64,000 nt of DNA from Homalodisca vitripennis (taxonomy: Eukaryota > Arthropoda > Insecta > Hemiptera > Cicadellidae), in assembly GCF_021130785.1 (NCBI RefSeq), contig NC_060209.1, forward strand, positions 22,568,001 to 22,632,000, given 5' to 3'. The position numbers and the translations under genes are program-made. Every line of letters begins with the position of its first letter. The first letter of the stretch is position 1. The notes beneath the pieces are model-generated. The model was not told the DNA's origin. It worked only from the letters and a program-made list of their open reading frames with translations, and did no database searches. This document shows positions 42,930 to 63,785 of the stretch, piece by piece.

Positions 42930-44236
42930 GATGAGTGAAAATAATTATTAAACTTATCTCTCACGGACTTATGTCTTACAAATTCAAAACAGCTCATCTT
43001 GGAAAAGTAAATTCAACCAAGAACTGGCCACTGAAAGTTATGTTTAAAAGCCACTGCGATTCTTTGGAAATTCTACGCAATTTCTCAAGGGAACCCTTAA
43101 GACTGCTGATGCTCACTTTAAGACGTTAAAATCTCCATCTATTGTCATTATCAACTTCAAGAGTGTTCACGTTTATGTCTTACGTTATGATGGGTGGATT
43201 CATACTACCTAGTGCATCGTCTAGTTGGTTATGTAACACGCCTATTGCTTGGTCTAGGTTTGCACCATTACTTAGATCATAGTCTTCTTGATGTTTATTT
43301 CAAATGGAGCAGTTTTGCATATCGGTTAATTTTCGCCTCCACTTGTTTAAAAAATGTATTTGTGAGTCCAAGTACTTTTTGCGCACTCTACAACATCTTA
43401 TTTTACGTGGTTCTTTATCACAAAACCTCCTTCCAGCAAAACCTGCCTTCTATTCGTGTGTTTTCCAGCGTTTCTTGTGCTAAGCCATGCTCTGAGATTA
43501 TGATTTAGTCTGGTTGCGTCTTACTAAAAAAGTGTGCTAGCTTGTCAGTCTGTTTTGCCAACAATATTTTGATAGGCAATATTGAGTTTGTATTCTTGGG
43601 CCCTCTGCTCTGCTAGCATTGTTTTTCTTCTGTTTTTTGTATTTCTTGAGGAGTGAATTCCTTAAATTTGTTGATTTCTGCTTTTTTATTTACTTGAGAA
43701 CCCGATTTTTACTAAAAATTAGTTCCTGTAGTTATTTTAGGGTATTCTTCTGGGTTATTTCCCTCACTATCCACAGTAGAGTTGTTAAAGGGAGGTTTAT
43801 ATTTTGGATTTGTATTTACATAGTATCTAGCAAGTTCATCAGGCCCAAGACAGACATGTTTAACACTTATTGGATCCACTTGATAATAGTGTCTTCTAAA
43901 GTATTGGTGATATACACAAAGGAATTTGTATTTCTTGAGATACCCACAAGATAGTGGGAGTGGATCTGTAGATGTGTTAAGGTTTGGTGGTAGTTCGTCT
44001 ACACAACAGCGTCTACTGCTAGCCGATCTTGAAATTCATGGATTGTTGATGTCACATACCGCAGTTTGCTCAGTTCTCATTTTTCTGAGTGTTTGCATAC
44101 AAGCAAGGTTATCTGCTTTTATCAATGATTTTATTAAGATTGTTTAGGGCGTCAAATGGAGCAGTCTTAGGGTCGTTTTCCGTTTTGTTTTTTTTGTACA
44201 TTCCTTGTGAGTAATATGTAAATATGAGGCCATGAG
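42930..44236 (-). other. Intergenic sequence with scattered open stretches, possible viral continuation
   Basis: The minus strand has short open runs in changing frames, such as LARYYVNTNPKYKPPFNN (about 43800) and LDQAIGVLHNQLDDALGS (about 43230). They are too broken to assign. The block lies on the far side of the transposon from the viral helicase fragment and could be part of the same insertion, but no polymerase motif was found. Confidence 0.25.
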
Positions 44237-47200
44237 ATGACAAGTGGGATAAGTTCACTTTTCACTATTTTGAGATAAATGTGTTTAAAGTATTTTACGC
44301 CGTAGAACTTTAATTTTTATTTGATTGAAAATATATTTTGGTAGTCATTTTTCTATGTTATTTAGATAATTTTGACATAAAAATCAACTCAGAAAATCAG
44401 TACTTTTATTTGTATTACAGTTTTATTTACTTCAGGGCATCACTTACTCCACTTGGCTTCTTATTAACAAGTACTTACCCCACTTGGCTTTTTAAATTAT
44501 TGTCCTTTCATATCAGGTGACCAATACTGTTGGCCACATCTGTTTCTACATCAGATCGACAATTATCTGTAAATCAGTTTTTTAAGGAATACATTACTCT
44601 TGGAAATAAGAATCAACAAATTTTCTGAGAAAATAATATTTTATTTGTGATACAAAGTGAAGTTATACATTTAATTTAATTGATGTTAACTTAAGTTCAA
44701 TATGTTACATGATGCTTTCATCTTCAGACTCCATTACTTTATCAAATTAAATTTCCTCGTTTTCAAGGGGTTCATTTGTCTCCTTTGAAGATCCAGCCTT
44801 AGTTGGTGTTCGGCGAGTAGTTGGCTTAGTTACAAGTTCACCTTTCTTAAGATGTGGTAGATTGATGTAAAAATCATGGTGAATCGGGGGTATGAAAGGT
44901 AGAAGGCTTTGCAGGTCAATGTACTTTTTGTACTGAATTTTGTTTTTTTTTTTTTGTCTGTTGATTCCAAGTGAAGGAAGGACTGCTACTTCTTTGTTAT
45001 TGACTATGTTTTTAGCAGTAATATTCATTTTATAAAAACAAACAGTTTCTGTTACCACAGAATAACTATAAAAAAGAGTGAAAGGTTGGTCTTTTCTGAA
45101 TTTTAGCCAATGAAATTTACTGATTCCTATTACATCTTTGACAAAAAAAAGGCAATATTGGCTGCAAATTAATAAAATCTTCATCTGCCATTTTGACTAC
45201 CATGAACTTTTTACTACTCTTTGCGATGATCTCACTCCAGTGAAGAGGAATAAAAATCTCCCTTGAGTTGTATCTCTTGGCCTTCTCGATCACACCGAAG
45301 TCCCTATCACATTCATTAAAGGAATGACCCGGAACAAAGAATTTATGGTTAACCAATTTAATATTTGTTGATTATGTTAACCATGACCAAAACTTTACAG
45401 TCAGAGAGCTCTTATTTTGTCCCCCACAGTTGTCACTGAAAGCGATGATATGATTAACTGTAGGGGGCAAACTGTTTACAAACTTTAATATGCAAGAAGC
45501 AATTGCTAGGCAGCCTCTAGAATATTGGCTTTCATTCCACATGAACATAGTTGCTTCTCTGTACATGCATTGTGTATGCACAGGTTATATGTCCACAATT
45601 GCCGACAGTAATATACTTTACTACATTGCAGAACTGGTGTTGGTAATGTTTTTTGGAGATCAAAGACTATGACAACTTTGGACTCATCTTGATTTAATAA
45701 TGTCACTGCTTCTTCTTTTGCTTTACGCGCACTTTCAGCTTTTCTAAGGTGAAATTCCTTCTTGGTGAGAAGCTCAGATTTCTGACCAGGAGTTTTTGCA
45801 TGATCGATTTGATTTTTCAATAAGTCACATGTGTTACAAGTGTCAGTGCTGGGTTTCTTGAAGCTGTAATTGAATTTAGTATTGAAAATGTAACGATAAA
45901 AGCTTTCTTTTACAGAAGATTTATTGTTTTCTTGGCACTGTTCTTTATACTTATTGTACATCAACTTCAAGTTTAAACTTGAATCTAAATAGCGCACATG
46001 CGGATTTTTGTTACGAGAATAGTGACTTGTGTAAACTGGAAAGGACCGAATGTGACCAATTACCTCATCAACTTTATCATCAGGTAATTTATTACCTGGT
46101 ATAGCTTTACCTCTCAAATCCTTTGGAGAGACTCCAGCACCTGTACTTTGTAGCTTTTTTTTGAACAACATAATCCAGCCGTCGATTAGATATGTTAAGA
46201 GTTTTTACAAAGAACTTTTTGCAAACTCTTATCCCCCAAAACTGGTTGAACGCTCACATTCTTATTTTTTTTTTAATTAAGTTTTTTTCTAACTTCATTT
46301 GTAGAAACTGAATTGAACAGGAAAGATGTTTGTAAATTCCAGTTATCAAGTGCCCAGTATTCATTGAAAATCTGAGACCGTTGTTCATCATTAAACTTAT
46401 CATTACAGCCGTACCTGCACTGATGAACATACTCAGTTGTGTTTTCGCTGCATGAAGTCTACTTTTCCGATCCTTATACTCCAGACCACTATTTCTCAAT
46501 GTGGACGCCCTTTTCCTTTTCCACATCCCTTCTTTACGTTGCCTTTTCCTTGGGCGCTCGATTTCAGCTGATTCAACGTTAGCTAATTGCTCTTTGTCAC
46601 TGCTGTCACTTTCTGACGATTCAGGCTCATAGGTCTTGTCTTGATCATCCCCATCATCTCCTGGAAGTAGATTTTATTTTTAAAACGGTTTTTACTAACT
46701 TTATTATAAAACTTTATTAATCTAAAACAGGGTAAATGTTTACTTTAGCTGCGGTACTTCGCATGAAATTGTGATTTTCTCTGTGGAAAGTACGTACTTA
46801 AAAAGTGCTTAGAAAAGCAATAATGAAGAAAAATATGAGAACAATTCCTGCATGAGGGATAAACCCTCAATGTAAGGAAAACTCCAGATTTTAATTTAAA
46901 AATAGTAAATAAAAGGAAAGTAAGAAATATGAAGCTAACAATAATGTAGCCTACTTATGTATTAACACTACTGTAGCTAAAGATGACTTTTATTTTTCAT
47001 TATTGCTTTCCTAAACACGTTTTAATTACTTTCAATAAGGAAAATCACTGTTTCATGCGAAGTAGCTAAAGTAAACTATTACCTAAAAAAATAAAAGCAA
47101 CAGAGAAAGTTTAAGCCTAAGTAACGTAATTGGTTCATAGTTCATGGCTAAAATAGTCTGTGTTGGTCAGATTTTGACTACCTTTAATAAGTATGCAAAT

Positions 47201-47607
47201 AAAGCTTTTGATTTAAAACCAGATAATTATGGCCATTGAATCTCTATCCCACCAATTTATCTTTTGAGGATAAACTAATATTTTAGAAGAAATATTTTAT
47301 AACCAAGTGCTTAACACTCATTTTTTTGCACCAGACGTAATAAAGTTACAATTAAAATTATAAAAATGTGTTACCTGGGAATAATGCCTCTTCAGAAGAA
47401 CTCAAATGCTCCATTTCCAGAAGGTCTATGATTTTGCACAAACTAAGAAATCGTCTTGTTTGGAAGCCAACTGAGACATGTGGTACTCACACCACTTGGC
47501 TTCTGAAATTTTCTTATCCCACTTGGCCATTAACTGAAATCAGCTGATTGTTGAGATTGTTCTCACAATATCTTCTAGATAGCAGCACTTGTCACTATTT
47601 TCACTTA
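44237..47607 (-). mobile_element. DNA transposon carrying a DUF7869-type gene
   Basis: Inverted ends GACAAGTGGGATAAGT (left) and ACTTATCTCACTTGTC (right) enclose the DUF7869-like coding remnant. Inside each end lie further copies of CCACTTGGCTTCT and CCCACTTGGC, in the same orientation at both ends. No clear target duplication was found. About 3.4 kb, inserted upstream of SART1 beside viral helicase sequence. Inverted ends plus a catalytic-looking gene suggest a once autonomous element. Confidence 0.65.
44747..47419 (-). pseudogene. DUF7869-type (RNase H-like) protein, frameshifted
   Basis: Apparent first exon MEHLSSSEEALFPG (47419 to a GTAACA donor near 47372), then after a TTCCAG acceptor near 46663 DDGDDQDKTYEPESSES and a basic KRQRKEGMWKRKR. 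Then EYVHQCRYGCNDKFNDEQ, KLPDDKVDEVIGHIRSF, DTCNTCDLL, FDLQKTLPTP, YYCRQLWTYNL, SDNCGGQNKS, GHSFNECDRDFG, and WLKFRKDQPF. These blocks and their order occur in a family widespread in arthropod genomes. FDLQ and SDN are candidate metal-binding Asp positions. At least three frame changes (near 46250, 45560, 45160) and a probable gap after SDNCGGQN make it inactive. Confidence 0.7.
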
Positions 47608-47639
47608 TCTCACTTGTCTACCAAATTTTCTGTATCTTA

Positions 47640-48340
47640 AGCTGTGCATTCCTGTGCATTCCATTATATTATAATGACTGAGGTGCTTTTTGTATATCTG
47701 TTAAGAGGTACTCAATTCTTGCGTTGTTTCAGCAAATTCTGTAATTTTTTGGAAGCTCACTTCCAGGTCCTCTATTCTGTTCATGTACGGGATCTGGCTT
47801 CTGTTACCAATAAGCAAGATATCTTTAGCCTTGGAGATATTTGATGTGAATAGAATTTATCCTGCTTTCATTATTAGTGCTTCGTCAATAATAAACGTTT
47901 GTAGCAGTGTCCGTGTTTAATATGGTTAGATGAATTTATGATAAAGGAGTGGACTGTTCTGAAAGTGTCCTGTCCTGCTCGGGGTTGAGTTTCTTTTAGC
48001 CTTAGCCTAAAATCAGGGGCGGACTCCCATATTAGGAATAGAATAAAATCTTCAGTTTGACACATATTCAGTATAAAGGTGGTTTTACCGCAGCCAGAAA
48101 CTTCTTGTATGAGTTGGATATTTAGTTCAGTTTCTTTGGCGATGTCAATGTTTTAATACTGTTGTAGAGTATTAAGTCACTGAAGATTTGAGTATCATCT
48201 GAGGCTAGAACAAGTTTATTGGGATAAAGGTTATTTTGTAGTTGCTATATATTTGCTGTTTATCTCTTGTAAGTTGCACGACATTTCCTTTACATCGTGG
48301 AAACAATGATCTGCTGAATGACTAAATTCATCCTTATTCG
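47640..48340 (-). pseudogene. Endogenous viral element: helicase fragment of a virga/nege-like RNA virus
   Basis: The minus strand encodes a superfamily 1 helicase piece: Walker A SGCGKTTFIL, then DTFRTVHSFIIN, then in a shifted frame a Walker B-like IIDEAL and, after a stop, a LLIGNRSQIPYMNR stretch. The order matches helicases of plus-strand viruses of the Virgaviridae/negevirus sort. One frameshift and at least two stops make it non-functional. It ends near the right end of the DUF7869 transposon. Confidence 0.75.
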
Positions 48341-48555
48341 AGGTTGAGACATGGAATGCAAAACCAGAGGCAGGGATAACTATCGTATTGGCTAACAAAG
48401 GGCAGAAATATACTCAAATTTGCCTTTTCAGACAGGCTTCCGATTATAAATTCTCTTCCGATACAGCGTTTGGGGGGTTCTTGGCACATTAGACAGGCGG
48501 CCATACAGCGGGATTGGAGTAACCAATCCAACCAATAGGTTTCAGCGGGAAAGAT

Positions 48556-49929
<1,374 letters not shown>

Positions 49930-49935
49930 TTTATT
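49930..49935 (-). terminator. Polyadenylation signal of the CD36-family gene
   Basis: AATAAA on the minus strand, about 80 nt past the stop codon, the usual distance for a short 3' UTR. Confidence 0.5.
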
Positions 49936-50013
49936 CCCAGAAAAGATTGTCACCTATATTAATTTCAAAATTTAATTGTATAATGTTTACAAGAAATACA
50001 CATTCTACAGTTC

Positions 50014-50239
50014 TCATTCAAGCAAGGAAACAGATTCTGAAGTGTCTTGACAGCGGAGAACTATCCCCAGGAGAAGCAGGATGGCTCCCACGCCTCCGCT
50101 GATCAAGAGGATACACCAGCCTCCCCACTTTGAGAAGGGGTAGAGAGGATGCATCAGAGCTGCCAAGTCAGGAGTCAGGATAGCATACTGATCCAACCAG
50201 TACATTGGCATATAGATTCTACTTAAGTTACTGAAAAAA
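50014..50239 (-). CDS. CD36-family exon 10 (C-terminal anchor and stop)
   Basis: Acceptor GGTCAG. It encodes FFSNLSRIYMPMYWLDQYAI, a short linker, the hydrophobic helix WCILLISGGVGAILLLLGIVL and a 14-residue cytoplasmic tail, then TGA at 50014. Matches the last ectodomain strand and C-terminal membrane helix of CD36 proteins. Confidence 0.93.
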
Positions 50240-51824
50240 CTGACCACGACAAGAGTAGAATTAGTCCTTTATTCAACTTATGTTCGTTATTGAATTTAGT
50301 GTTACAACAACTAAGACACTCTTATTATGTTTAGTTAATAATACGTAAATAACAGTGTTATTGATATGTATTATGAAGATATTGTCAAGAAAGTGACAAT
50401 CGATCTTTGGCAGACCATGTTAAAGTTTGAATCATCACAAACACGATATGGTGTTGATATTCTGGTGACACGTTCATGTTTTAATACGTGTTCATTTCAT
50501 TTATGCTCACCAGTTGCGTAACTAAGGGAGGATGAGAGTGATAGAATCCCCTCAAAAGACATAAATATTAAAAAAAAAAATCATATTTATAACACCAATC
50601 CAACTTGCTTGAAATACAGCAGTTAAATATTACTCAACTGCTTATGAATTAGGCTTATGTAATTAAGTTTAGATTTATTCAGATTTATTCAGATTCATTC
50701 CATACCCCCAATGTGGTGTGCTCTTCAATCAGATTCATCCCCCAAAGCCAAGACTAGGTTACACCACTGATGCTCACTAATCCCTATCACACCTACGATT
50801 ATTCTCTAGCGTTATAAACAGTTGTAATAAAGTATTCAACACAATGTTCGTATCTCTTGTAGTCTTGGTAGGCCACTGGCAAGGAATACACTAAAAGTTC
50901 AAAATACTATAAATGATTGTTAAAATTACATTATAACTGTAAAATATAATTTTAAAATGTGTAGAAAGGCCGTGGCGTGTTCTTTCCCCTGTCACACTTC
51001 AACTACAACTGTACTGGTGCTACTTGCAGTAATTACTCTACATTGTTTATTGGTTATTAAGTAAAACACTGTGCACATAACGTAGATATGGTGGGAAGGG
51101 TTGATCCAGTTTGAATGTTTAGGTTAGCTTCAGTATAGATCATGAGATATAGTATCTCATCAGTTCTGTGACAGCGCCAGATTCCAGATGCTGCACTAAG
51201 AGGAAGGTGAAATGGATTTAAACTCAACATTTGCATTGAATCAACCCTTCCTACCATTACTCTTCGCTATAAGTAGAAGTAATTATGTATATTGATGGAT
51301 TTGATCTTCAAACGTAGCAAAATACTTGTAAATGAGTCTTGTATATTTGTCTTGAAGCAAATCGCATCTATACCTATACGTCAGGTTCCAGAAGCGGGAG
51401 GTGAAATGGAGCTACACTCAACATTTGGATTTAATCAACCCCTACGTTATGTGTAGAAAATTCGGTTGCTCTGTCATGCTTTGGGATTAAAGCATATCTA
51501 AAACATTGTAGTGCACTCAATTGTGCAGCTGGTGATAAAATGAGAATACCTCGATCTTCATCTAGATTACACTGGATAGCTGATGGGTAAACCAGACAGA
51601 GCTCTTATTCTTATATTCATAAAAAACGTATCTTATTAAAACTTACGTCATGTTTGGTATCGGTTCCATGAGCAAGTTTGTTTGTAACCTAACTCGTACA
51701 ACCAGTGGCACAGACGTAAGCTGCAAAATTGCACTTAGGTTAGGGTTTTTAAGTTAATATAAAACAAATCATTATTTTAACATCTAATGAATATAATGGC
51801 ATGGGATGTTATAATGAATCAAAT

Positions 51825-51889
<65 letters not shown>

Positions 51890-54800
51890 CAATAACATTG
51901 GTAAAAGCAAAATAATAAAAAAAAATTAACCAATAACAATTTAAACTTAATGTAAAAAAGTCTTCTATGGGGTATGAACAGTATTCTGTTAATTATTTTT
52001 AACATATCTTTTAAATGAATAAAGAGGAAGTTCTTTTATTTCTGTATGCAAAAAGTTAAAAAAAATCTAATACTGCTACCATAAAAACGTGAGTAAGACT
52101 AATTAATTTGAAGCGATTTCTGGTTTCATAGCTGTGTACTTTTGAATAATCCCTAATTCCCTGTCTATTCCTGTTCACAATGTCAAACACTGCAAGATAT
52201 AAGTAGAAAAACTGTTGGAATTCTATGCTTTAAAAATAGTGGTGAACAGTGTTCATAATTCCTGGCTCCAGACATGATTCGTAAAGCTCTTTTCTGCAGC
52301 AAAAATACGTGTGAGATTTCATGAGTGGTGCCCCCATACAATAGTGCAGTAAGAACTATGGCTATGTACATGGGCATAATATAAACTCTTTGATTTAATA
52401 TATTTTGGCATAATATTATTGATTTATAATATTCAATTATCAACATTGGGAATGCATTTTTTCATAAAAATACAATGTATATATTGTTTTTAACAGTTAA
52501 TGAAATCACAGACTGTATTTGATTTGGAAATCACAGATTTGAAATGGAATGATCTACAAATAGGCATTCCTTAGGGCCATCAATAAAACTATTCTGTATG
52601 TTATTATTTAGCAACTTTCAATGTTCATTTGATGTAAATTAGTACATTTTAAGATCCAAGTACTAGAATTATACTTTAAAAAATGTTTGGATATACTTGG
52701 TATTCTTTTATTTGATTATTACAGATTTTAAAAGTTTTTATTTATATTGTTTGTACTCACTGGGCTATTTGTACTCACATTAGCAAGTGACATGAAGAAC
52801 GAGTGTTTACTAGCGTTAGGTTCCAGTCCACTGATTGCCTCCAAGTAACTGGGATCTGCATGGAGGAAGTGGGGCAGGGAGACGAACAAGGGGGCTCGTT
52901 TACAGGCCGATATATCCCGCACACCTATAGACACAGCAACACCACTTCTCACTGGTTGGATATTTGTGGACTGCTTTATTATCTATAATCATACTTTTAT
53001 ATTTTATAACACTAAAACTAATATACACAGTATACCCAGCAGGGATCACTTCTGGCTGGTTTATACCTTCCAGTTGGACCCACCACTGGGAACAGCAAAA
53101 ACCGATGTGTCACTTCAATCTGGACAACCTTATGGATGTCCAGGTGCAGCACATCACTAACCGCAAATGTCGAGATTCTGGGGTTCATGGGCAATTCGAT
53201 AGTCTAGTCTACTGTGGGAGATGACTGTTGGAGTTGGTGGGTTTTGTTCCCTAACCTCAGAGGCTTTTGCTAGCCTCAACAAGAGTGTGCCACCCCCTGC
53301 CTACTTTGACTAGAGAGGCTGGTTCAGAGCTGGCCTCCCCTTCTTCCGGGGAGACATGAATTTGAGATGTAGTTCCCTAATTCTTCCTCATGGATCTCGA
53401 CAGGAGGCGACCCCTACACTAACCTTACCCATCCTGAATATCCTGTCACTCCGGAAGCACTGCAAAGGTTCTTACAGGAAGTGCAATTTATAAGCTTCTT
53501 GTCCTAAGAGAACAAAACACAGTATATCTAACAGCTAAAGAAAGAACCCCTATAACTTCTAGATTCAAACATGACAATAATACATACTGTATAATAGCAC
53601 TTATTTTAAGATATACTTGAATAATGAATTAATAAACGGAACAAAAGTTCACTGAGAAAATTTAAAAGTGATTTTAACCACAGAGTAACTTACAGCAAGG
53701 GTGACATATCTGCTTTATCACATGTTCATATTTTTGTACATTGGAGAGGATAAGTCGTATGCTCTCAAGTGGTAACAATGGTAACAATGAAGATATGAGT
53801 ACCAATCAGAGTTTTATAACTTGATAAGGTCCATCATCTTAAACAGCAAAATTTCATAATTCAAATCCGGACTTAAAGCATTATAAATAAAGAGATAGAG
53901 TTAGAGATTAATGTAAGGAAATCAGTCATTTACCAGAAGCAGGACATGTTTGGCGAGGACAATAACAAGTCTCATTGTTGCTGAACATGGACTCGGTGGC
54001 TCGGTACTGGACCCCAGGTATGTTGTTTAGTTCCACAAGTTTTTCGTAATCAAGGGTGTATACTCTGGAACAGAATAACTTAATGCAATGTAGTGTATGT
54101 AGTTTGCAAATCTAACTTATTAAGCTAAGCCCATACTAACCTACAAATGTGGCATTGAAGAGTGTGAACTAGATCCATTTAATGTGGATAGATGCAACCA
54201 ATTACCATTTATAAATCTAACTTATCAAACTAAGTCCATACTAAACCATAAATGTAGGTATTGAAGAGTTTTAACTGGATCTGTTGAAAGTAGATAGGTG
54301 CAACCACTTACCATATTTTGTAAATCTAACTTATAAAACTATGTCCAGACTAATTCACAAATGTCAGTATTGAAGAGTGGGAACTAGATCTGTTTGAATG
54401 GGGATAGGTGCAACCAGTTACCATTTCTAAATATAACTTATCAAACTAAGCCCATACTAACCCACAAATGTCAGTATTGAAGAGCGTGAACTGGGGCTGT
54501 TTGAATGTGGAGAGAGGCAACACATTACCAATCGTTGATTTGACCTGTCCACAATCTCCCGGGTAACAGCCTGTGCTAGAAACATCATTTTACAGTAGTG
54601 TAGGTACAATTTATTTAACATTTAGATTAAACTTAATTTTTTAACAAACTGATGGTATCAGTATCCATTTTATTTATTTCCAAATATAATGACTGTGTGT
54701 ACCTCTTGTGGTACATTTATTAGTGATGTAAATAGGATGTCTATACTCCTAGGGCAACTTATTACAAACAGAAGTACTTGATGTTTATTATATATTCATA

Positions 54801-57800
54801 CAGTTTGTTTAACAGTAAATCCTGATTTGATTTTTGATAAGTTGATAAATGAATTTTCTACATCAGCTGCTGTCAGCTTCACTTTATTTAACATAATACG
54901 TTTTTATTTGTTAAAATAAAGGGCAGTGGAACAAAATATGATGTCTGTTCATTGCCATTCATCTCACAACTATGCTCATCTCCCGGCATTTTTAACTATT
55001 GTACATCTAGTACTTTGTGAAATAAGAAAGTAAAGCAATGTATTGGTAGCTATTACTAATCAAACATGTTACTCACCGTATTTTAAAAAAAATTGTATAC
55101 CAAGAGCTACACATGGGTTTGCACACAATTTCCTGATAAACAACAGGGATGTCATTTAAATGAAATAGCAAACACATTCCTGTGATAATTGGTGACCACT
55201 GGAATATACTTCAATCTCCTGATCCATTTTTTCTGCAGTTAGAAAGTGAAATAATTTTCATAAGTACAAACGAGATGTCAATACATTTCTCTACACCGTT
55301 CTAAGATATTTGATAGAATAGCTCCAATGATTTTAGTAGTGCCTGGTCCTTCCATTTTTGTTCCTTCAACTAATGTAGATATGCTTTCCTACAATGATAA
55401 AGGAAAAATAATTTTGAATATCCAAAAAATACACTAATTTGAGTTCATCACTGCTGCTATCTACAGTAAAAGCCAGATAGTACAACTGTCATATCTATTT
55501 GCAGCCCACTACAGCAGATGATGTTTCGTTCATGTAAATACAAAATTCTGGAATATGTATTTTATAATAATTTGTATTTTTGGATTAAAATATGTGTACA
55601 CTTTTTTATGATATCCGAGCAAAATCCATGACCAATTTCACTTAAACATGCCCAATAGATTTTTTGTGGAGGAGTATCAAACATAAAAATATACAAACTT
55701 CTAAACAGTATACTTCACAAACTTTTGCATTTATAATATTAATTCGGTACGTTTTTGAAATTATTGAGTCCTTCAAACTATATTGTTAGCATATTAAATA
55801 ATACCTTGTTTCATAGTTCCAACTAGTAAGTAGACCAAGCCTCTCGATGTCTTTCTGCCCAGTGTACATTGTGATCACTCCGTCAAATGTAGAAGACATA
55901 TTACGCTAAAATATAATTTAAATGTTATTGTTTACAACCGATTTTATACTAAATAATTGTACTTAATGATATATTTTTATTTCAGTGTTAATGACCTAAC
56001 TTAAAATATGTTCTACCTATACAAAACTTGATGGAACAAAAATAGACGTTGAAGACAGTTACATACAACACTGCTGAGCCTACCATATATCTACAGATGG
56101 AGGAATTTAGCTACGCGCGGAACCCAAATACAGTACTACCCTTTCAACAAATAAACGCTATCTGTGTGGCGGGTTGCATTTACGTGCTAGCCACTGAGAT
56201 GAAGGCGCAATAATATTTTTAACATCAGTTTAAACTCACGATTTCAATTTGCCGATTAGCATCGACAAATAAGTTATTTTTTAAAACACGATAACAAGAC
56301 TATAACAATTTAGTAAAAAAAAGTACATGTCCTTATTATTGCTATTATTTGAATTTCTATAATTATTTCATTTTTAATGAATTCAATAATATTTAGTTAA
56401 TTAAAATACTGGAATAAATATAATTTTATAACAACAAATGTAATCTACAACGTTTTTCATTGGAGTTCTTTAATCCCATTACATTCTTATCGAGTCATCT
56501 AATTAAGTAACTGCTTTATGTCGTCGGCTTTTTTGTGTAGTAAAACTTGCCTTGCACTGATTACTAACCATCAATTTTTAAGCTCACCGTTTATTTCAGT
56601 CACACTCGTTGCTGGAGTAGTTCTTTGATAACCCTTCGATAATGGAATATTAACGGTTTGATGGTCTGTCTCTTCCTTCATAAATTTATAAACATTACTG
56701 TACTTTACCTTTGAATTTCGACTTTAACTCGTCAGCCAATATCAGTAAAAACAAAGCTCCAGCAACTACCACACACAGCACCGTCACAAAATTGTGCCTA
56801 TTTAAGTATATACTTATTATTAAATCAAATTTCCAAATTTATGGTAACTATTACAAGGCAGCCAACTCTTTTGTATTTGTGTTTATCAATACTTTTTTAA
56901 TGCATGTGGTTTAAATAATAAATTGATAACTACCAAAGTAGCAATATAATTAATAATTCTAATAATGCTACGATAATATTTAAATAATTACAAACGTTTG
57001 AATTTCTAACCAATTAAATTTTTTTAGCCTAATAGACAAAAAATACAACAATAACAACGATCAAAACAGTATGATCAATAATGTTATCTAAACAAAATTT
57101 TTCTAATTAAGGAAAATTTGTAGTCAAATTATTTATTGTAATTACAAATTAAATACATAATGGTATTTTATTCTGAAACTTAAGTAAAATTATTCATTTT
57201 GTAGCATGTGCAATGTTTTTAGAAATGAATGAAAAGTGATTGACTGGCGAAGGGTGCATTCTTCCCAATGCTCCACTTGTGAGCTCCACACAGTAGAGAA
57301 ATGTGTGTGACACTACTACGATTAATTGGTTACCTGTTTCACAGCATATCTCAGCAGCTGGCAGACAAGAACACTATAGGCTACAGAATACTAAGTTAGT
57401 ATGAGAATACGGTCACCTTGAAACAATACAAAAAGTTACTTGTTCCACAAAAACACATAGTTAGGTTGGATTCATGATTACAACAGAATACAGTAAACAG
57501 TAATAGTTGTTATTCTTTATACAGTTGTGTATTTCTATGAATGAATAATGATTGAATCTTGAATATTTAAGAAAAACAATTATTGTATAGTACACACAAG
57601 TAAAGTTTGTTTGAATTCATAGTAGAAATATATTACTTGCAAATGGTGGTATGTTTTCTTTATTGATGAAATATTAACATTGATTTTTATTGAAAAATCT
57701 GACACTGCTGTCTAAAAATGCTTGAACAATGCAGTACAGGTACATGTTACTTGTAACAAAACACAAGTTTGTTCAATCTTTCAGAAACATTTGCTTTCTA

Positions 57801-60800
57801 AAAACAATTTTTATTCAAATGAAGCAATAAATTCACAAAAACATCACTTAGGATGACAGTTGTAAAATAAATTGTGTTAAATATTTTAAGACACTCAGAT
57901 AAAAGTTTAATAACACTTTAAACAACTAATTTTCTTACATATAAATAAGTTAACTTAGTTTTAATTTCCAAACAATTTTTCAGGAAGGCAATTTTTAGTC
58001 TCTTACTAATTTTGGTAGAGTAAAAAAATAAGAAAACTAAGAGAAACATAAGATTGAAGTTTAAATCTAACAATAAAACTGTTTACATGTAAAATGAAAA
58101 ACCAGATTAAAACACGACTTTTTAACAATTTGGTGCTTTATGTATTTTAAGCTAAACCAACTAATTATAAACCACAAAATGCATTAAAAAAATAATTAAA
58201 ATTAAATTAGACAGAAATAAAACATCTGACAAACATATAATTAAGATATGTACATAATATTTACATGTATCTGAGATACATACGTATCTGAAATACACAT
58301 TAATTTTACTTAATTAGAAAACAGTACTAAACTTAATTCTATCACATTTTATTTCTAAAATTTTTTTTAACTACAATGCCAGCATCTTTTAGTACCATCC
58401 AAAACTATCATAGTCGGGAAAATCTGTACAATACTTTTGTAAGTCAGCGTTCTGCAAGAGAGTATAGCTGTAGCCATTAAAGATGAGATCTTTCTCACTC
58501 TTGGATACAATAAAACTACAATGCCAGTACCTGATAGTACCATCCGAATCTGTCATAGTCAGGGAAGTCTGGGAGATACTTTCGCAAGTCAGTGTTCTGC
58601 AAGAGAGCATCGCTGTAGCCATTAAAGATGAGATCTTTCTCACTCTTGGATACAATAAAACTACAATGCCAGTACCTGATAGTACCATCCGAATCTGTCA
58701 TAGTCAGGGAAGTCTGGGAGATACTTTCGCAAGTCAGTGTTCTGCAAGAGAGCATCGCTGTAGCCATTAAAGATGAGATCTTTCTCACTCTTGGATACAA
58801 TAAAACTACAATGCCAGTACCTGATAGTACCATCCGAATCTGTCATAGTCAGGGAAGTCTGGGAGATACTTTCGCAAGTCAGTGTTCTGCAAGAGAGCAT
58901 CGCTGTAGCCATTAAAGATGAGATCTTTCTCACTCTTGGATACAATAAAACTACAATGCCAGTACCTGATAGTACCATCCGAATCTGTCATAGTCAGGGA
59001 AGTCTGGGAGATACTTTCGCAAGTCAGCGTTCTGCAAGAGAGCATCGCTGTAGCCATTAAAGATGAGATCTTCCACACTCTTGGAGACAATAAGACTCCC
59101 TTCCTTCTTGAATATGTTGTCCACAGATTCTGTAAGGTTTCCCAGATTGTGACATCTTGAGCCAAGAATCTGCAAATGGCTATGTTTGAGTCAGAATTGA
59201 CCAAAGGTTGACTTAATATTGAAGAATGTATAGAGTGTTCCTCCATTTTCAACATTATCATAATTAGAGGAAATTAAACTTAATGTATCTATTACAGGGC
59301 TTTCCTTTTTATCACTTTTAACATTTTAGGTCATGAGGAATCAAGGGAGATGTGAGACAACTCAAAATCGTTAAATATGACACATAATCAAAATGAAGTA
59401 ATTTTAAAGGCAAGAAATTTTAAATAAGACTATATAAGAAATTTTATATAATGATATCTGGAGCATTTTCAAAAAACACACAAACTCTTGCCATAAAAAG
59501 TTCTTAATGTTTGATATAAAGTGAAGAACACTATTTAAAAAAGCATGTCAAAAATGAAAATAAATTGAAGGTAGTAAATCCTTGCTTATTCTACAAGTTG
59601 TTTGTACAGTTAAAATACTTTGCATTGTAAATGATAAAACACAACAATTATCATAACTTATGTGTGTCTTACCAACTTCTTGTAAATCATTGTAAATATG
59701 TTAACTAAAAACATTCAAAGAATTTTTCATTCATCAATTTTAAAATGTGCTAATGATTTGGACAAATAAATTTACTGATAGCTGCCAATTTTTTGGGTCG
59801 AACTTTCTCAAATTCTTAACATTGTCACAATACTTACACCTGTTATTTCTACCTCAAGCCTTCCATGAAACCTCAATGTGTTCAACTAAACATTTAACGA
59901 GATTGAATAAAATTCAATCTCAGCATTACTACTTTATCTTCCATGTATTGCATTCTCAGAATGTATGTTGTAAGTTTTTCACATAGATGTACAGTCTACG
60001 GACATACCATGGCAACAGTGTTGAGGTTGGTAACAATGTCAGAAAGAGAGCCAGACGACATGTTTGGCATAAAATGCCACTCGTTGCGATTCAAGAATGT
60101 GATGGTGCTGTTGTCGTTCCACACTATGTTCCGCTTGGAGTGGTGCTCACTGTAACGAAGCAGATTCATGGTTATATTTCTAAACTGAAATGAACATTAA
60201 CACATTAACATTGCTTCGTGATCTTAACAAATCTTAGTAACATTTCACTGCTGGCCTATACTGAATGATCTTGAGACTGTAATGAAGTTACACACCCTAA
60301 GGTGTCTGCCACAGTCAACGTCTGCAGATTCATAAAACAAACTTCTCTTGTGGACAGCTGCTGGATCCTCCCTAACTCAAATTATGAATATGCCACTGGA
60401 TTTCATATCTACCATTTTTTAATAAAAGTTATATTCAGTTTTTATGAGTACATAGAAATTCTTGTTAATAGTGTGATCCATTTATATACAAAATAGAGAT
60501 CAGATAACAGAGAGCTTTTGTTTACATAAAAATACTCATATGAGTTATATTTATCAAAATTTCTTTGTTCTGGTGATCACTCATCAGATTTCTAAAAAGA
60601 ATCTTACAGAAATGGGAAAAGTACCTAAGATCATTTTTTCTACTTCAATTTAACATATAAAAAAGTATGTACCTGAAGACATAAGGTCCCATCTCAGTGA
60701 AAGCAGGTTTTTCAGGACCATGGAGGGATTGATCAGGGTTCGTCCAGTTGAAAAGAACAACGTTCATGTACATCGGCAGCGGGGTCTCCCTCCACATGTT

Positions 60801-63785
60801 GAACGTTATGGAATACGGTGATAGAGCGAATTGCTGTGCACCAAAGTAATAAAAAGTTTAATGGAGAATATAACTAAGAAAAGTTAACCGGTTTCCATAG
60901 CAGTGTTATAGTTAAACTTAGTATTTCCAAATAGTGAGTATAAACACAAAAAATGTTCTCTATAAAACTTATAAGGCTCTTTGTAATAAAACAGTTCACA
61001 GGAAAATCTATATTTTATATGAAAAACAATATATTTACATGAAAACTGAGTTTCCACAATCTTAAACTAAAAAAAAATTATAAACTTCTTTATACTTCGA
61101 TAAATTACTATTCAGTTTGAGTGATAATACAAACACAGATTATCAAGGTCAAGTATTTTTAGTTTCTTAGAAGTAAGTAATTAGTTTATTTCACTGCAGA
61201 AAGTTATTAAGAAATAAGATTATGGTAATAGATTTGTTTTAGGTTTTTTTTTTGTTTTAAACAACCAAGGTGTAACGTTTCATACATTACTATGTCACTT
61301 GTTCATTTATAACTTCAAAAATTCTCATAATTCTTTTATGAAATAGTTTTTCAATGAAAAAAGGACAGAAATGGAAATAAATCCCATATTAAAACCTTAA
61401 ATGCCAGTGTTTTATCATAGCATATTTATCTAAATCAATCAATTTAGTTAAACATTTCTCTTTTGATTCAATGTCTGTTAAAGTTTTTCATAATTTGACA
61501 TTCCTTACATCATAATTATAAATGATTTATACCTAATTTTTGATTTTTTTAAAATTCACTTTTGATTTTTTTTAAATTCACTTTTGAATTTGCTAAATTC
61601 AAAACACCATGTAAACTGAAGCATGTTTTGGTGTTTCTATTTGCATCCAATGGAATTTGTCACTATATATTTTTATTTACTACCAATAGAGTTTTAGTTA
61701 CTCTACATTTATTATTCCCTCACTGAGAATCCACCTGTACTTGTAGTCAGTACAGTTTGCATATTTTGCAATCTATGATTAATTGATATAATATTACTAA
61801 GAATCGTGAGTGATCAGCAATTATCATTAGTAAACCAATTGAACTTTTTCATGTGTGTATTCAACTCCCATTACTATTTTTTAGCATTTCATATATTTTA
61901 CTAAAAAGTATTGGTTATTATGGCATAATTTTATTAGAAGATTAATACTGAAACTATTATCTAATTTTTATATGTTTAAAATAATTATGTTTTTTGTAGT
62001 GTTTTGAACACATGCTCTGCCTTCCATATTGAACTTAAAATACCAGGTGTTTATAAATGAATATCAGAGTTTTAACGTTTTGTAGTATTTATTATATAAA
62101 ACTTAAATTATAATTAATACATGAAATTAAAGAGGAACTCAAACAATTATAACAACAAGCTTACAAGTTTTCAATGTGAGCTCCATTCGTAACACACCAC
62201 ACATCAAGTCAATAGCCCAGTTCTTTCCTAACTTGGAACAATGTGTCTTGAGTGATAGTTGCAATAGCTGCTTCAATGCTATTCATTGCCGGGTAGGTGA
62301 CCTGATAGTGGAGACACATACACACAATCATTTATGAATCCCCAAAGGTATAAATTACACGGCGTAAGGTCGGGTGAACATGGAGGCCAAGCAAGCTCTG
62401 TCATTAGACCCTTGCAGCCAATCCAGCTGTCTGTACAGTGACGTTCAACCAATTGCGTACTGAGTTATGCCAGTGAGGCAGTGCACCATCTTGCTGCCGA
62501 ATGAAGTTCTGTGGTTTATCTTCTTCCATTTGAGGAAGTAGACATAGTTCTAGAGCATCAAGTTAAGAAATGCAAGTTATCTTACAGTTCCTTTTCTAAA
62601 AACCTTTCCATAAACTTTCCGCCTAGACATGGCACAAAACAAAACATTTAATTTAGGAGAGTCTCACTGCAATTTTACCATCTCGTGAGAGTTTTCTGAG
62701 TCCTAGATACGCACATTGAGTGTTCACATGTTCACTGAGGTGAAATGTTGATTCATCATTGAAAACAACAAGATTCAGAAAATCTGCATTGTCATGTAAC
62801 AAAATTTTGTTTGGAAAATTGGTACTTAAACCATAGTATACAGGTTTTAGAACCTGTAACAACTGCAAACGATAAGGGTGTAGATGTAAGCATTTCCATA
62901 TGACTTCCCAAACAGTCATCACTGGAGTTGCTAATTCACGAATAACCTTCCGAAATGAATTCTGTGGGTTATACGTGAAAGTCTCTTTCATTCTCTCAAC
63001 ACTCTCTTGACTAACCGTTAGTCGTCCCACGTACTCTTCCCTTTGAAAAGGCAGCCAGTATCTTCAAACTGGTAATACCAACTACGGATGTTTTTATCAC
63101 TTGGAGGATCAAAACTGAACTTTATATGTTGCACAGTTACTACAGATTTGGTCTTTACAAACTGCAGAACATAAAAAAACTTCTGTTTGCGAGTCACCAT
63201 TTGTGCTACTATTGCTAATGGCTGGTGAAGGAAACATTGCGTCCGCATTTGAGTTGCTCTTTGATTTGATGTAGGAATTATAATTATAAGTTACATGTAA
63301 AAAAAACTATAAAGTGTTAACACCCTGATATTTATAATCTAATTTATAAACACCTGTATTTGTCTTTATTGTTTAACTTTAACCTGTCATATTAAGAATA
63401 TTATTCTGGCTATATATCAAGGGTTTCATTTATTTATTACAGCAACACAAGGTTTAATTAAAAATAAGAATTTCAATTTTTCATACTGGGTATTTACAAA
63501 TATTTACGTTCATCAGTATTACGTTATTGATACAATTTTATATTTGTACTACTCTCTGTTACAAAAATTCATATTTGCACCATGTAAACTCCATAAGCAA
63601 CTTAGTAACTTTGGGCTCACCCAGCTGAGGAAGTAAAAGAAGATAGAGGACCATAAAGCAGCAACCACGATGGCAGGCAACAGACAGCAGCAACCACATC
63701 CACAAAGACAGAGCTTCTGTTTGTTGAGTGTCTGTTTGTAACCACAACAGTTCACCACTCGAGGGTGTTTCTTCTCAGGTGCCAT
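50014..63785 (-). CDS. CD36 / class B scavenger receptor family protein (10 exons, complete)
   Basis: Membrane receptor or lipid transporter of the CD36 family (SR-B, croquemort, SNMP group). Exons (minus strand): 63621-63785, 60673-60833, 60008-60149, 58966-59169, 55805-55905, 54462-54575, 53934-54064, 52779-52924, 51647-51720, 50014-50239. They total 1464 nt, 487 aa plus stop, in frame throughout. Residues about 37-54 form the N-terminal membrane segment after a Cys-rich stretch that could be palmitoylated; residues about 454-474 form the C-terminal one. The ectodomain has the signatures FNWTNPD, AFTEMGPYVF, LIFNGYSD, WNYET, CYCPRQTC, SLPHFLHADPSYLEAISGLE and RLQTN. An in-frame TAA just upstream fixes the start. 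The exact subfamily cannot be told here. Tandem copies follow exons 4 and 6, and a mariner-type element sits in intron 1. Confidence 0.93.
51074..51453. repeat. Foldback element B, copy 2
   Basis: CACATAACGTAG at the left and CTACGTTATGTG at the right form perfect inverted ends. Internal strings GGTGGGAAGGGTTGAT and GAAGGTGAAATGGA match the copy at 4731-4966. An internal ATCAACCCTTCCTACCATTA near 51240 suggests a nested or tandem partial copy. Lies in an intron of the CD36-family gene. Confidence 0.65.
51647..51720 (-). CDS. CD36-family exon 9 (short)
   Basis: 74-nt exon: LTSVPLVVRVRLQTNLLMEP then IPNMT, the PxTGxPLxxxxRLQxN block of the family. Acceptor TTTGCAG, donor GTAAGT. It is too short to stand out as an open frame; it was found because exon 8 and exon 10 require it for both phase and motif order. 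Confidence 0.9.
51829..51888. repeat. (TA)n microsatellite
   Basis: About 30 uninterrupted TA repeats in the intron between exons 8 and 9 of the CD36-family gene. Confidence 0.95.
52183..52446 (-). pseudogene. Non-LTR retrotransposon reverse transcriptase C-terminal remnant
   Basis: The minus strand reads IVLTALLYGGTTHEISHVFL, LQKRALRIMSGARNYEH and CSPLFLKHRIPTVF, the post-RT LQKRA-R-I...C-PLF signature of Jockey/CR1-like LINEs. Only this tail is present. Confidence 0.7.
52779..52924 (-). CDS. CD36-family exon 8
   Basis: Encodes GVRDISACKRAPLFVSLPHF, LHADPSYLEAISGLEPN and KHSFFMSLAN, the strongly conserved C-x3-P-x4-PHF-x2-AD-x7-GL-x-P-x4-H block of CD36 proteins. 49 codons, acceptor CTATAG, donor GTGAGT. 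Confidence 0.95.
53036..53503 (+). repeat. Dispersed retroposon A, copy 2
   Basis: Highly similar to 4967-5418 along its whole length, from CCCAGCAGGGATCACTTCTG to TTATAAGCTTCTT, but without an A-tail. Lies in intron 7 of the CD36-family gene, antisense to it. Confidence 0.75.
53934..54064 (-). CDS. CD36-family exon 7 (Cys-rich)
   Basis: Encodes VYTLDYEKLVELNNIPGVQY, RATESMFSNNET and CYCPRQTCPASG. This corresponds to the family's KGIxxYRF region followed by the CxC...C cluster whose cysteines form ectodomain disulfides. Acceptor TTCCAG, donor GTAAAT. Confidence 0.93.
54070..54528 (-). repeat. Degenerate tandem array copied from the end of CD36-family exon 6
   Basis: The last 67 bp of exon 6 plus the start of the following intron are repeated three more times to the left, with units of roughly 105-115 bp. 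Each is recognisable by the minus-strand string GGTTGCA-CTATC...CTCTTCAAT...ACATTTGT. The extra copies hold stops or have lost their donors, so they look non-coding. Same layout as the exon 4 array, but older. Confidence 0.8.
54462..54575 (-). CDS. CD36-family exon 6
   Basis: Acceptor TTCTAG, donor GTTAGT. It continues WNYET as STGCYPGDCGQVKSTIG, then LPLSTFKQPQFTLFNTDIC. This fits the family's CG-x-V-x-GT-xG segment and the stretch before the LCR position. A tempting earlier donor at 54528 (GTAATG) breaks the phase with exon 7; reading through it to 54462 keeps the frame and yields the expected residues. Confidence 0.87.
55805..55905 (-). CDS. CD36-family exon 5
   Basis: Acceptor TTTTAG, donor GTATTA. 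It encodes RNMSSTFDGVITMYTGQKDI, then RLGLLTSWNYET, the family's N-x-T-x-DG-x5-TG and lxxWN blocks. It ends with two spare bases completed by exon 6. Confidence 0.93.
55906..58378. other. Intron 4 of the CD36-family gene, no recognised content
   Basis: AT-rich intronic DNA between the exon 4 array and exon 5. I see no exon, inverted repeat or element signature here. Confidence 0.5.
58379..59066 (-). repeat. 145-bp tandem array copied from the 3' part of CD36-family exon 4
   Basis: Five tail copies end at 58966 (true exon 4), 58821, 58676, 58531 and 58386. The three middle units look identical to one another; the leftmost is diverged and has a TAA and no donor. Each intact unit has the donor CAG/GTACTG and an internal CTCTCTTGCAG acceptor. 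Read as GT-AG pairs, they give 66-nt cassettes at 58821-58886, 58676-58741 and 58531-58596, each 22 codons in phase 0 (NTDLRKYLPDF...RFGWYYQ), separated by 79-nt introns. Reading through the donor without splicing hits TAG after four codons. Confidence 0.9.
58966..59169 (-). CDS. CD36-family exon 4 (parent of the 145-bp array)
   Basis: 68 codons, phase 0 at both ends. It reads ILGSRCHNLGNLTESVDN, SKSVEDLIFNGYSDALLQ, and ends DFPDYDRFGWYYQ before GTACTG. LIFNGYSD is the family's LxxGYxD block, and the junction FGWYYQ-RNMSSTFDG with exon 5 is the conserved FGxFYxxNxTxDG motif. The 3' portion is the source of the tandem array extending left to 58379. Confidence 0.93.
60008..60149 (-). CDS. CD36-family exon 3
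   Basis: The first base completes the Ser codon of exon 2. It reads EHHSKRNIVWNDNSTITF, then NRNEWHFMPNMSSGSLSD and NTVAM, with N-x-S/T sequons expected of a glycosylated ectodomain. 48 codons, donor GTATGT. Confidence 0.93.
60673..60833 (-). CDS. CD36-family exon 2
   Basis: Phase 0 start at QFALSPYSITFNMW. It carries RETPLPMYMNVVLFNWTNPD and AFTEMGPYVF, the family signature where a Trp and Pro-x-Pro precede an FNxTNP block and the GPYVF motif. It ends with two bases (AG) before GTACAT. Confidence 0.95.
62043..63356 (-). mobile_element. Mariner/Tc1-type element (DUF4817-like transposase), decayed
   Basis: Inverted ends CCAGGTGTTTATAAAT (left) and ATTTATAAACACCTG (right), each with ATATCAG strings inside, flanked by TA. 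The minus strand encodes SVERMKETFTYNPQNSFRKV, LHPYRLQLLQVLKP and VVFNDESTFHLSEHVNTQCA, then further on WPPCSPDLTPC-like and GAHIENL-like pieces. This is the insect transposase type with an SVER-x-F-x-S-P...HPYK-x-QL head. Frameshifts and stops break it. Lies in intron 1 of the CD36-family gene, same strand. Confidence 0.82.
63621..63785 (-). CDS. CD36-family exon 1 (start, N-terminal membrane anchor)
   Basis: ATG at 63785, preceded in frame by TAA. 55 codons: MAPEKKHPRVVNCCGY, then a Cys cluster CLCGCGCCC, then hydrophobic LLPAIVVAALWSSIFFYFL ending in SW. The donor GTGAGC follows. The order basic tail, cysteines, transmembrane helix is the standard CD36-family N-terminus. Confidence 0.9.

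What the first reader, a model, noticed from the sequence alone, without database searches (positions are those of the whole stretch)
58379..59169. Self-contained tandem mini-exons in a CD36-family gene: 145-bp units each with a 66-nt in-frame cassette and a 79-nt GT-AG intron
Seen: exon 4 is followed by an array of its own 3' part with period 145 bp. Every intact unit has a donor (CAG/GTACTG) and a CTCTCTTGCAG acceptor. The piece between acceptor and next donor is 66 nt, phase 0, open, 22 residues; the rest is 79 nt, a normal size for a short insect intron. Exon 4 ends in phase 0 and exon 5 starts in phase 0. Inference: splicing could insert one to three extra copies of a 22-residue ectodomain segment without frame loss, whereas read-through stops after four codons. 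Creation of a ready-spliced exon by a duplication that captures its internal cryptic acceptor is a neat route to exon birth.
Basis: partly seen in the sequence, partly recalled or inferred. Interest (0 to 1): 0.85.

Follow-up and report, generated by a model that had tools for sequence, protein, structure and literature searches.

The report
Duplicated exon end in insect gene
In a leafhopper scavenger-receptor gene, a piece covering the end of one exon and its splice site was copied head to tail into the following intron, so that each intact copy could in principle be spliced in as a small extra exon, but the evidence at hand favours silent by-products of ordinary tandem duplication.

Summary
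Exon 4 of a complete 10-exon CD36/SCARB gene (minus strand, 63785-50014) is followed by three identical 145-bp units, each a 79-nt GT-AG "intron" plus a 66-nt open phase-0 cassette, and by a fourth, decayed unit. The nearest proteins found are from sharpshooter leafhoppers: Homalodisca vitripennis (97%) and Graphocephala atropunctata (85%). An inverted partial copy of the gene ("B", exons 3-10, about 256 kb away) has one unit plus the decayed one. There the cassette carries two insertions and an in-frame stop, while 1,125 nt of exon have no indel and no stop. Intron 6 holds an older, broken array of exon 6's end, and two other CD36-family genes have arrays across a donor and an acceptor. Four arrays, for gene A's 10 exons plus 63 other match places, is about what the genome's array density gives. 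No inserted copy is seen in 9 homologous proteins. I conclude that these are neutral tandem duplications across a splice site, spliced away from the first donor. The cassette's acceptor looks strong, so occasional or regulated inclusion is possible but was not testable here. The nearest precedent is a potato RdRp intron gained by duplication across the opposite boundary.

The parts
63621..63785 (-). Exon 1 (start codon, N-terminal hydrophobic segment)
   Evidence: tblastn with the N-terminus of Graphocephala protein P0002, 80% identity over 55 residues; donor and frame
60673..60833 (-). Exon 2; its region gave one match in the genome (itself), none in copy B
60008..60149 (-). Exon 3
58966..59169 (-). 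Exon 4, parent of the array, with cryptic acceptor CTCTCTTGCAG inside
58887..58965 (-). Unit 1, 79-nt potential mini-intron
58821..58886 (-). Unit 1, 66-nt in-frame cassette (22 residues)
58742..58820 (-). Unit 2, 79-nt potential mini-intron
58676..58741 (-). Unit 2, cassette identical to unit 1
58597..58675 (-). Unit 3, 79-nt potential mini-intron
58531..58596 (-). Unit 3, cassette identical to unit 1
58386..58530 (-). Terminal, older unit: decayed, in-frame TAA, donor GT lost; also present in copy B
55805..55905 (-). Exon 5 (phase 0 acceptor)
54462..54575 (-). Exon 6, parent of a second array
54108..54530 (-). Second array: last 69 nt of exon 6 plus start of intron 6, period 107, about 4 copies including the parent; the three extra copies carry a stop or frameshifts
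53934..54064 (-). Exon 7
52779..52924 (-). Exon 8
51647..51720 (-). Exon 9
50014..50239 (-). Exon 10 (C-terminal hydrophobic segment, stop codon); start moved 9 nt upstream of the model after comparison with P0001 and P0002
   Evidence: end read by eye

Best explanation
A DNA-level tandem duplication (minisatellite-like, 145-bp unit) arose across the exon 4/intron 4 border of a CD36/SCARB gene and later expanded. Each copy carries the parental donor and, by inheritance from coding sequence, a cryptic acceptor. The spliceosome most likely keeps joining the first donor (58966) to exon 5 (55905), so the units are removed with intron 4 and drift; at most they are included as low-level splicing noise. 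Shown: the sequence anatomy, the likely order of events (terminal unit and one unit shared by A and B; further units of A young or homogenised), and decay in copy B and in the intron-6 array. Inferred: use of the first donor, and neutrality.
For: Copy B keeps exons 3-10 without indel or stop (27 substitutions in 1,125 nt; 63-72 expected, depending on which intron segments set the rate; NG86 dN 0.009, dS 0.085), yet its single cassette has +1 and +5 nt insertions and CAG to TAG; all three lesions falling in 72 of 1,197 nt has P about 2e-4. Of the 7 amino-acid differences between A and B, 1 is on B's branch when polarised with P0001 and P0002, so B's coding exons were under constraint. The terminal unit and the three extra intron-6 copies are broken. 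The first copy of exon 4 is the conserved one. In 9 of 9 homologous proteins no inserted copy is seen: no such insertion in the alignment; a motif count gave one copy in 7 and no motif match in 2 fish proteins. Other arrays across exon borders in the family (L053 donor side, L047 acceptor side) show the event is generic: 4 arrays for gene A's 10 exons plus 63 other match places, about 2.3 expected from background array density, P(>=4)=0.20. In L053 the possible cassettes for the two acceptors tested are 35, 116 or 124 nt, none a multiple of 3.
Against: The cassette acceptor scores 7.7 bits against a best of 5.6 for the 9 authentic acceptors of exons 2-10, and is the top of 45 exon-internal AGs in exons 2-9 (small matrix). 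The donors are copies of the authentic one, and 79 nt is a usable intron length, so inclusion is mechanically easy. The 145-nt unit differs at only 3 sites between A and B: 9.3 expected from the five intron segments first pooled (P=0.017), 8.1 from all seven segments (P=0.040); mini-intron 1 of 79, P=0.038 to 0.066. That is fewer than neutral, though chance or gene conversion would do. Exon 2 was not found in copy B, so its cassette may have decayed after B lost function; the clean exons argue against a long dead period. Within gene A alone, 2 arrays on 18 exon borders is more than expected (0.30; P=0.036). P0001 stands for a cluster of 6 sequences whose other members I could not see.
Confidence: 0.7

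Rival explanations
1. The units are genuine alternative (or constitutive) mini-exons: the mRNA of gene A carries 1-3 extra copies of a 22-residue ectodomain segment, so that copy number of a DNA repeat sets protein length.
For: All three cassettes intact and in phase, in-silico isoforms with 0-3 cassettes stay open; acceptor stronger than the authentic ones on a small matrix; donors identical to the real donor; 3 identical units in A; unit slightly less diverged between A and B than introns.
Against: Copy B's cassette is broken by two indels and a stop while its exons are intact; no inserted copy seen in 9 homologues; identity of the three units is explained equally well by youth; the terminal unit has lost its donor.
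Confidence: 0.17
2. The units act as decoy donors or poison exons: use of a later donor, or inclusion of a stop-bearing cassette as in copy B, sends transcripts to nonsense-mediated decay and lowers output.
For: Run-on into the array meets a stop after four codons; B's cassette keeps both splice sites but ends in TAG; the mini-intron is a little more conserved than the intron average (P=0.038 to 0.066).
Against: No conservation of the arrangement outside A and B could be tested; the conservation signal is 1 versus 4.4-5.1 expected changes and may be chance.
Confidence: 0.08
3. The copy number (three identical units) is an assembly artefact; the true locus has fewer or more units.
For: The three cassettes are identical and the units read alike; reads could not be inspected.
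Against: Copy B holds a diverged unit and the terminal unit, so an array of at least two units is real; similar arrays occur elsewhere in the genome. An error would change only the count.
Confidence: 0.05

Closest known systems
[quoted passage not shown]
   Same: Tandem duplication crossing an exon-intron border; one splice site inherited from the parental border and the other recruited from a cryptic site in the exon.
   Different: Mirror image: in potato the acceptor is inherited and the donor cryptic; here the donor is inherited and the acceptor cryptic. Potato has one new intron backed by 106 RNA-Seq reads; here it is an array with no RNA evidence, and each use would lengthen the protein.
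[quoted passage not shown] ATP2A1, Hellsten 2011; both seen here only as cited in PMC4974935)
   Same: Duplication itself supplies a GT and an AG.
   Different: That model duplicates a purely exonic segment and leaves the peptide unchanged; here the segment spans the border and inclusion adds 22 residues per unit.
Tandem exon duplication with alternative splicing (PMC9013439, abstract and outline seen)
   Same: Copies of exon sequence side by side in one intron, potentially spliced.
   Different: As I understand the class, whole exons are copied and often used mutually exclusively; here only the last 132 of 204 nt of the exon are copied.
Intronic minisatellites
   Same: Head-to-tail near-identical units; 8 merged arrays of period 60 or more in 178 kb here.
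   Different: This array starts inside a coding exon and carries splice sites.

Membership tests
CD36 / scavenger receptor class B (Pfam PF01130) | Sequence match to the family model above the curated cut-off | tested here: met
   Window exons score up to 67.7 bits against a cut-off of 26.5; homologues P0001 and P0002 carry PF01130; match to LIMP-2 chains, best E 9.9e-20
CD36 / scavenger receptor class B (Pfam PF01130) | Two hydrophobic terminal segments with an ectodomain between | tested here: met
   By eye: exon 1 and exon 10; no TM predictor was run
[quoted passage not shown]
[quoted passage not shown]
   79-nt GT..AG in units 1-3
[quoted passage not shown]
   No reads or transcripts of this gene were at hand; no inserted copy seen in 9 homologous proteins
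Tandem exon duplication | A whole exon with its flanking intron sequence is duplicated | tested here: not met
   Only exon 4 nt 73-204 plus about 13 nt of intron are in the unit
Minisatellite / tandem repeat array | Two or more adjacent near-identical head-to-tail copies | tested here: met
   5.0 copies, 95% match
Minisatellite / tandem repeat array | Copy-number variation between individuals | not testable with these tools
   One assembly only; gene copies A and B differ (three units versus one, plus terminal unit)

The most novel reading that the evidence does not exclude
A coding VNTR made of ready-spliced mini-exons: a duplication across a donor that captured the best-scoring cryptic acceptor of the gene lets each repeat unit be spliced in without frame loss, so that repeat copy number, and its variation between gene copies and individuals, sets the number of 22-residue segments in a CD36-family receptor ectodomain.
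Probability: 0.17. Interest if true: 0.65.

Novelty: new variant of a known kind. Interest (0 to 1): 0.38.

Why it matters
Tandem duplication across a splice site is a route by which a complete new exon-intron pair can appear in one mutation. This gene family in one insect genome offers a small natural series: a fresh array with intact cassettes (exon 4, gene A), the same array decaying (copy B), an old broken one (exon 6), a frame-incompatible one (L053) and an acceptor-side one (L047). The series would show whether the spliceosome ignores such units or samples them, which bears on how exon birth starts. If only the first donor is used, it also shows that such duplications are tolerated.

Tried and rejected
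Haplotype rather than paralogue for copy B: A and B differ by 4.0-7.5% in six intron segments outside the arrays (3.6% in the intron-6 array), against 1.2-1.7% genome heterozygosity reported for H. vitripennis (PMC8496328, passages); B is inverted, about 256 kb away, and its similarity stops inside intron 2. I treat it as a partial segmental duplication; a divergent misplaced haplotype is not wholly excluded.

Frame fit as evidence of function: rejected, since it follows from the parent exon with about one chance in three.

A mutational hot spot at donors: one of the family's four independent arrays lies on an acceptor, and the total is near background; the two arrays in gene A alone give P=0.036, too weak to claim.

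A second protein search with 239 residues from the end of exon 2 to exon 7 found nothing at E 1e-3 (200 candidates). A structure model to place the cassette was not possible (tool off). P450 exons as a second base-rate family: places were listed but no loci could be cut, so that control is missing. The first neutral rate left out intron 7 and the intron-6 array; one search adds them, and the P values above give both.

Species: inferred only from P0001 (97%) and P0002 (85%). The published H. vitripennis assembly is 1.93 Gb against 2.30 Gb here, and P0001 is not identical to A or B, so another Homalodisca population or a related species is possible.

Papers on partial-exon or border-crossing duplications: seven searches; listings only, apart from PMC4974935 and PMC9013439. 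I saw no donor-side array of this kind in those listings, which does not show that none is in print.

Full report
What is there. The window lies at C3:22568001-22632000 of a 2.3-Gb genome. The gene is on the minus strand and complete: ten exons from 63785 to 50014, an open frame of 487 codons by reading. The closest proteins are P0001 (hypothetical protein J6590_083230 of Homalodisca vitripennis, 97%) and P0002 (Graphocephala atropunctata, 85%), both with PF01130. It is a CD36/SCARB-type gene, most likely of a sharpshooter leafhopper. P0001 differs from both gene copies seen here, so the exact species is not settled.

The array. After exon 4 (59169-58966) come three identical 145-bp units and one decayed unit. 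A unit is the last 132 nt of exon 4 plus about 13 nt of intron 4. Because the unit contains the donor and, further in, the exon's own CTCTCTTGCAG, units 1-3 each read as a 79-nt GT-AG interval plus a 66-nt cassette. In-silico transcripts with 0-3 cassettes stay open; run-on into the array stops after four codons. A nine-site matrix (acceptors of exons 2-10) gives the cassette acceptor 7.7 bits; the authentic ones, each left out in turn, range from -6.5 to 5.6, and the other 44 of 45 exon-internal AGs tested in exons 2-9 score lower. The matrix is small. A TTTAAT stretch about 25 nt upstream of the cassette would do as a branch site (by eye; motif recalled).

A second copy of the gene. About 256 kb away and inverted lies copy B. 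It has exons 3-10 with GT and AG kept at the borders shown. Similarity ends in intron 2, the exon-2 region matched only itself in the genome, and on the 3' side similarity runs on at least to window 43602. Introns differ by 6.4% over five segments pooled, 5.6% over all seven measured; the exons differ at 27 of 1,125 sites without indels (exon 10 taken without its first 9 and last 4 nt), dN 0.009 and dS 0.085 by NG86, 0.012 and 0.063 by YN00. Polarised with P0001 and P0002, 1 of the 7 amino-acid differences falls on B. In B the array is exon 4, one unit and the decayed terminal unit. That unit keeps donor and acceptor, but its cassette has +1 and +5 nt and ends in TAG. If the cassette had been under the same constraint as the exons, three of three disruptive changes would fall in it with P about 2e-4. 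So along the B lineage the exons were guarded and the cassette was not. The caution is that B's exons 1 and 2 were not found, so part of its history may be that of a dead gene.

Against strict neutrality, the unit's substitutions between A and B are few: 3 of 145, 8.1-9.3 expected, P=0.040 to 0.017 by the choice of intron segments. The terminal unit shows 10 of 159, 8.9-10.2 expected. This may be chance or a conversion event; I leave it open.

It is not alone. Intron 6 of the same gene is an array of exon 6's last 69 nt plus 38 nt of intron, period 107, 80% match, present in A and B. In A the three extra copies are broken: the first has an in-frame stop and has lost the GT, the other two have one or two single-base deletions. 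A scan of the genome with PF01130 gave 73 places (only the best candidates are scored). Five belong to A and B, and five are extra units of one further array. For the 63 others the surroundings were run through TRF (27 loci; 34 loci covering 36 places, fetched). Two have arrays of period 40 or more across an exon border: L053 (C3:162.70 Mb, donor side, period 165, 5.8 copies, 95% match) and L047 (C9:31.63 Mb, acceptor side, period 98, 2.8 copies, 91%). A third (L043, period 61) lies more than 1 kb from its exon. In L053 the possible cassettes for the two acceptors tested are 35, 116 or 124 nt, so none keeps the frame.

Base rate. In 178 kb around A and B there are 8 merged arrays of period 60 or more, covering 2.8%; without the four exon-border ones 1.65%. 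For about 140 exon borders that predicts 2.3 hits; 4 were seen (P=0.20). For the 18 borders of gene A alone 0.30 are predicted and 2 seen (P=0.036). The border arrays are thus roughly what a genome rich in such arrays produces. A second gene family could not be sampled.

How it most likely works. A tandem duplication across a donor leaves the first copy of the exon and its donor untouched, so the old transcript can still be made; the extra copies become intron. This explains why the first copy is conserved and the last decays. Whether the spliceosome sometimes takes the cassettes depends on the strong cryptic acceptor and cannot be read from DNA. The alignment of nine homologous proteins shows no inserted copy, and a motif count gives one copy in seven and no motif match in two; P0001 stands for a cluster of six sequences of which I saw one. 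P0001 comes from a pipeline that used leg RNA-seq for training and refinement (PMC8496328, passages), but whether this model rests on reads is not stated in what I saw.

Relation to the known. The potato RdRp case (PMC4974935; part 1 of 5 and passages) is the mirror image: border-crossing duplication, acceptor inherited, cryptic donor activated, splicing shown by reads. The leafhopper array is a donor-side, multi-copy version without expression evidence. Whole-exon tandem duplication (PMC9013439, abstract and outline) differs because the exon is not copied whole.

Verdict. I rate it a new variant of a known kind, of moderate interest, with a cheap decisive test (junction counts in public RNA-seq).

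Noticed in passing
window 54108-54530 (and the matching intron 6 of copy B): Second exon-end array in the same gene: last 69 nt of exon 6 plus 38 nt of intron, period 107; three extra units in A, each broken by a stop or frameshift, and about four in B (by eye).
   Followed up: yes
L053 (C3:162699236-162702448), minus strand: Another CD36-family gene has five extra copies of an exon end (spacing 165 bp, the first 188). The first, in-place copy reads SPDRR where the units read SPDLCR, i.e. it lacks the cysteine that is invariant in the 9 aligned homologues, while the units keep it; the related exon in L041 also keeps the cysteine.
   Followed up: partly
L047 (C9:31630246-31633419), 1292-1569: Array of period 98 across the acceptor and 5' part of a CD36-family exon: the mirror type of the exon-4 array.
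   Followed up: partly
window about 43602-60541 versus C3:22884246 to at least 22916000: Inverted segmental duplication about 256 kb apart whose similarity ends in intron 2; the truncated copy B has accumulated fewer amino-acid changes (1) than the complete copy A (6, one of them less certain).
   Followed up: partly
window 16005-16447: Another tandem array, period 131, 3.4 copies, 95% match, not examined for genes.
   Followed up: no
window 46673-45120: Long open frames on the minus strand that look like a transposon-type protein (impression only, no search run).
   Followed up: no
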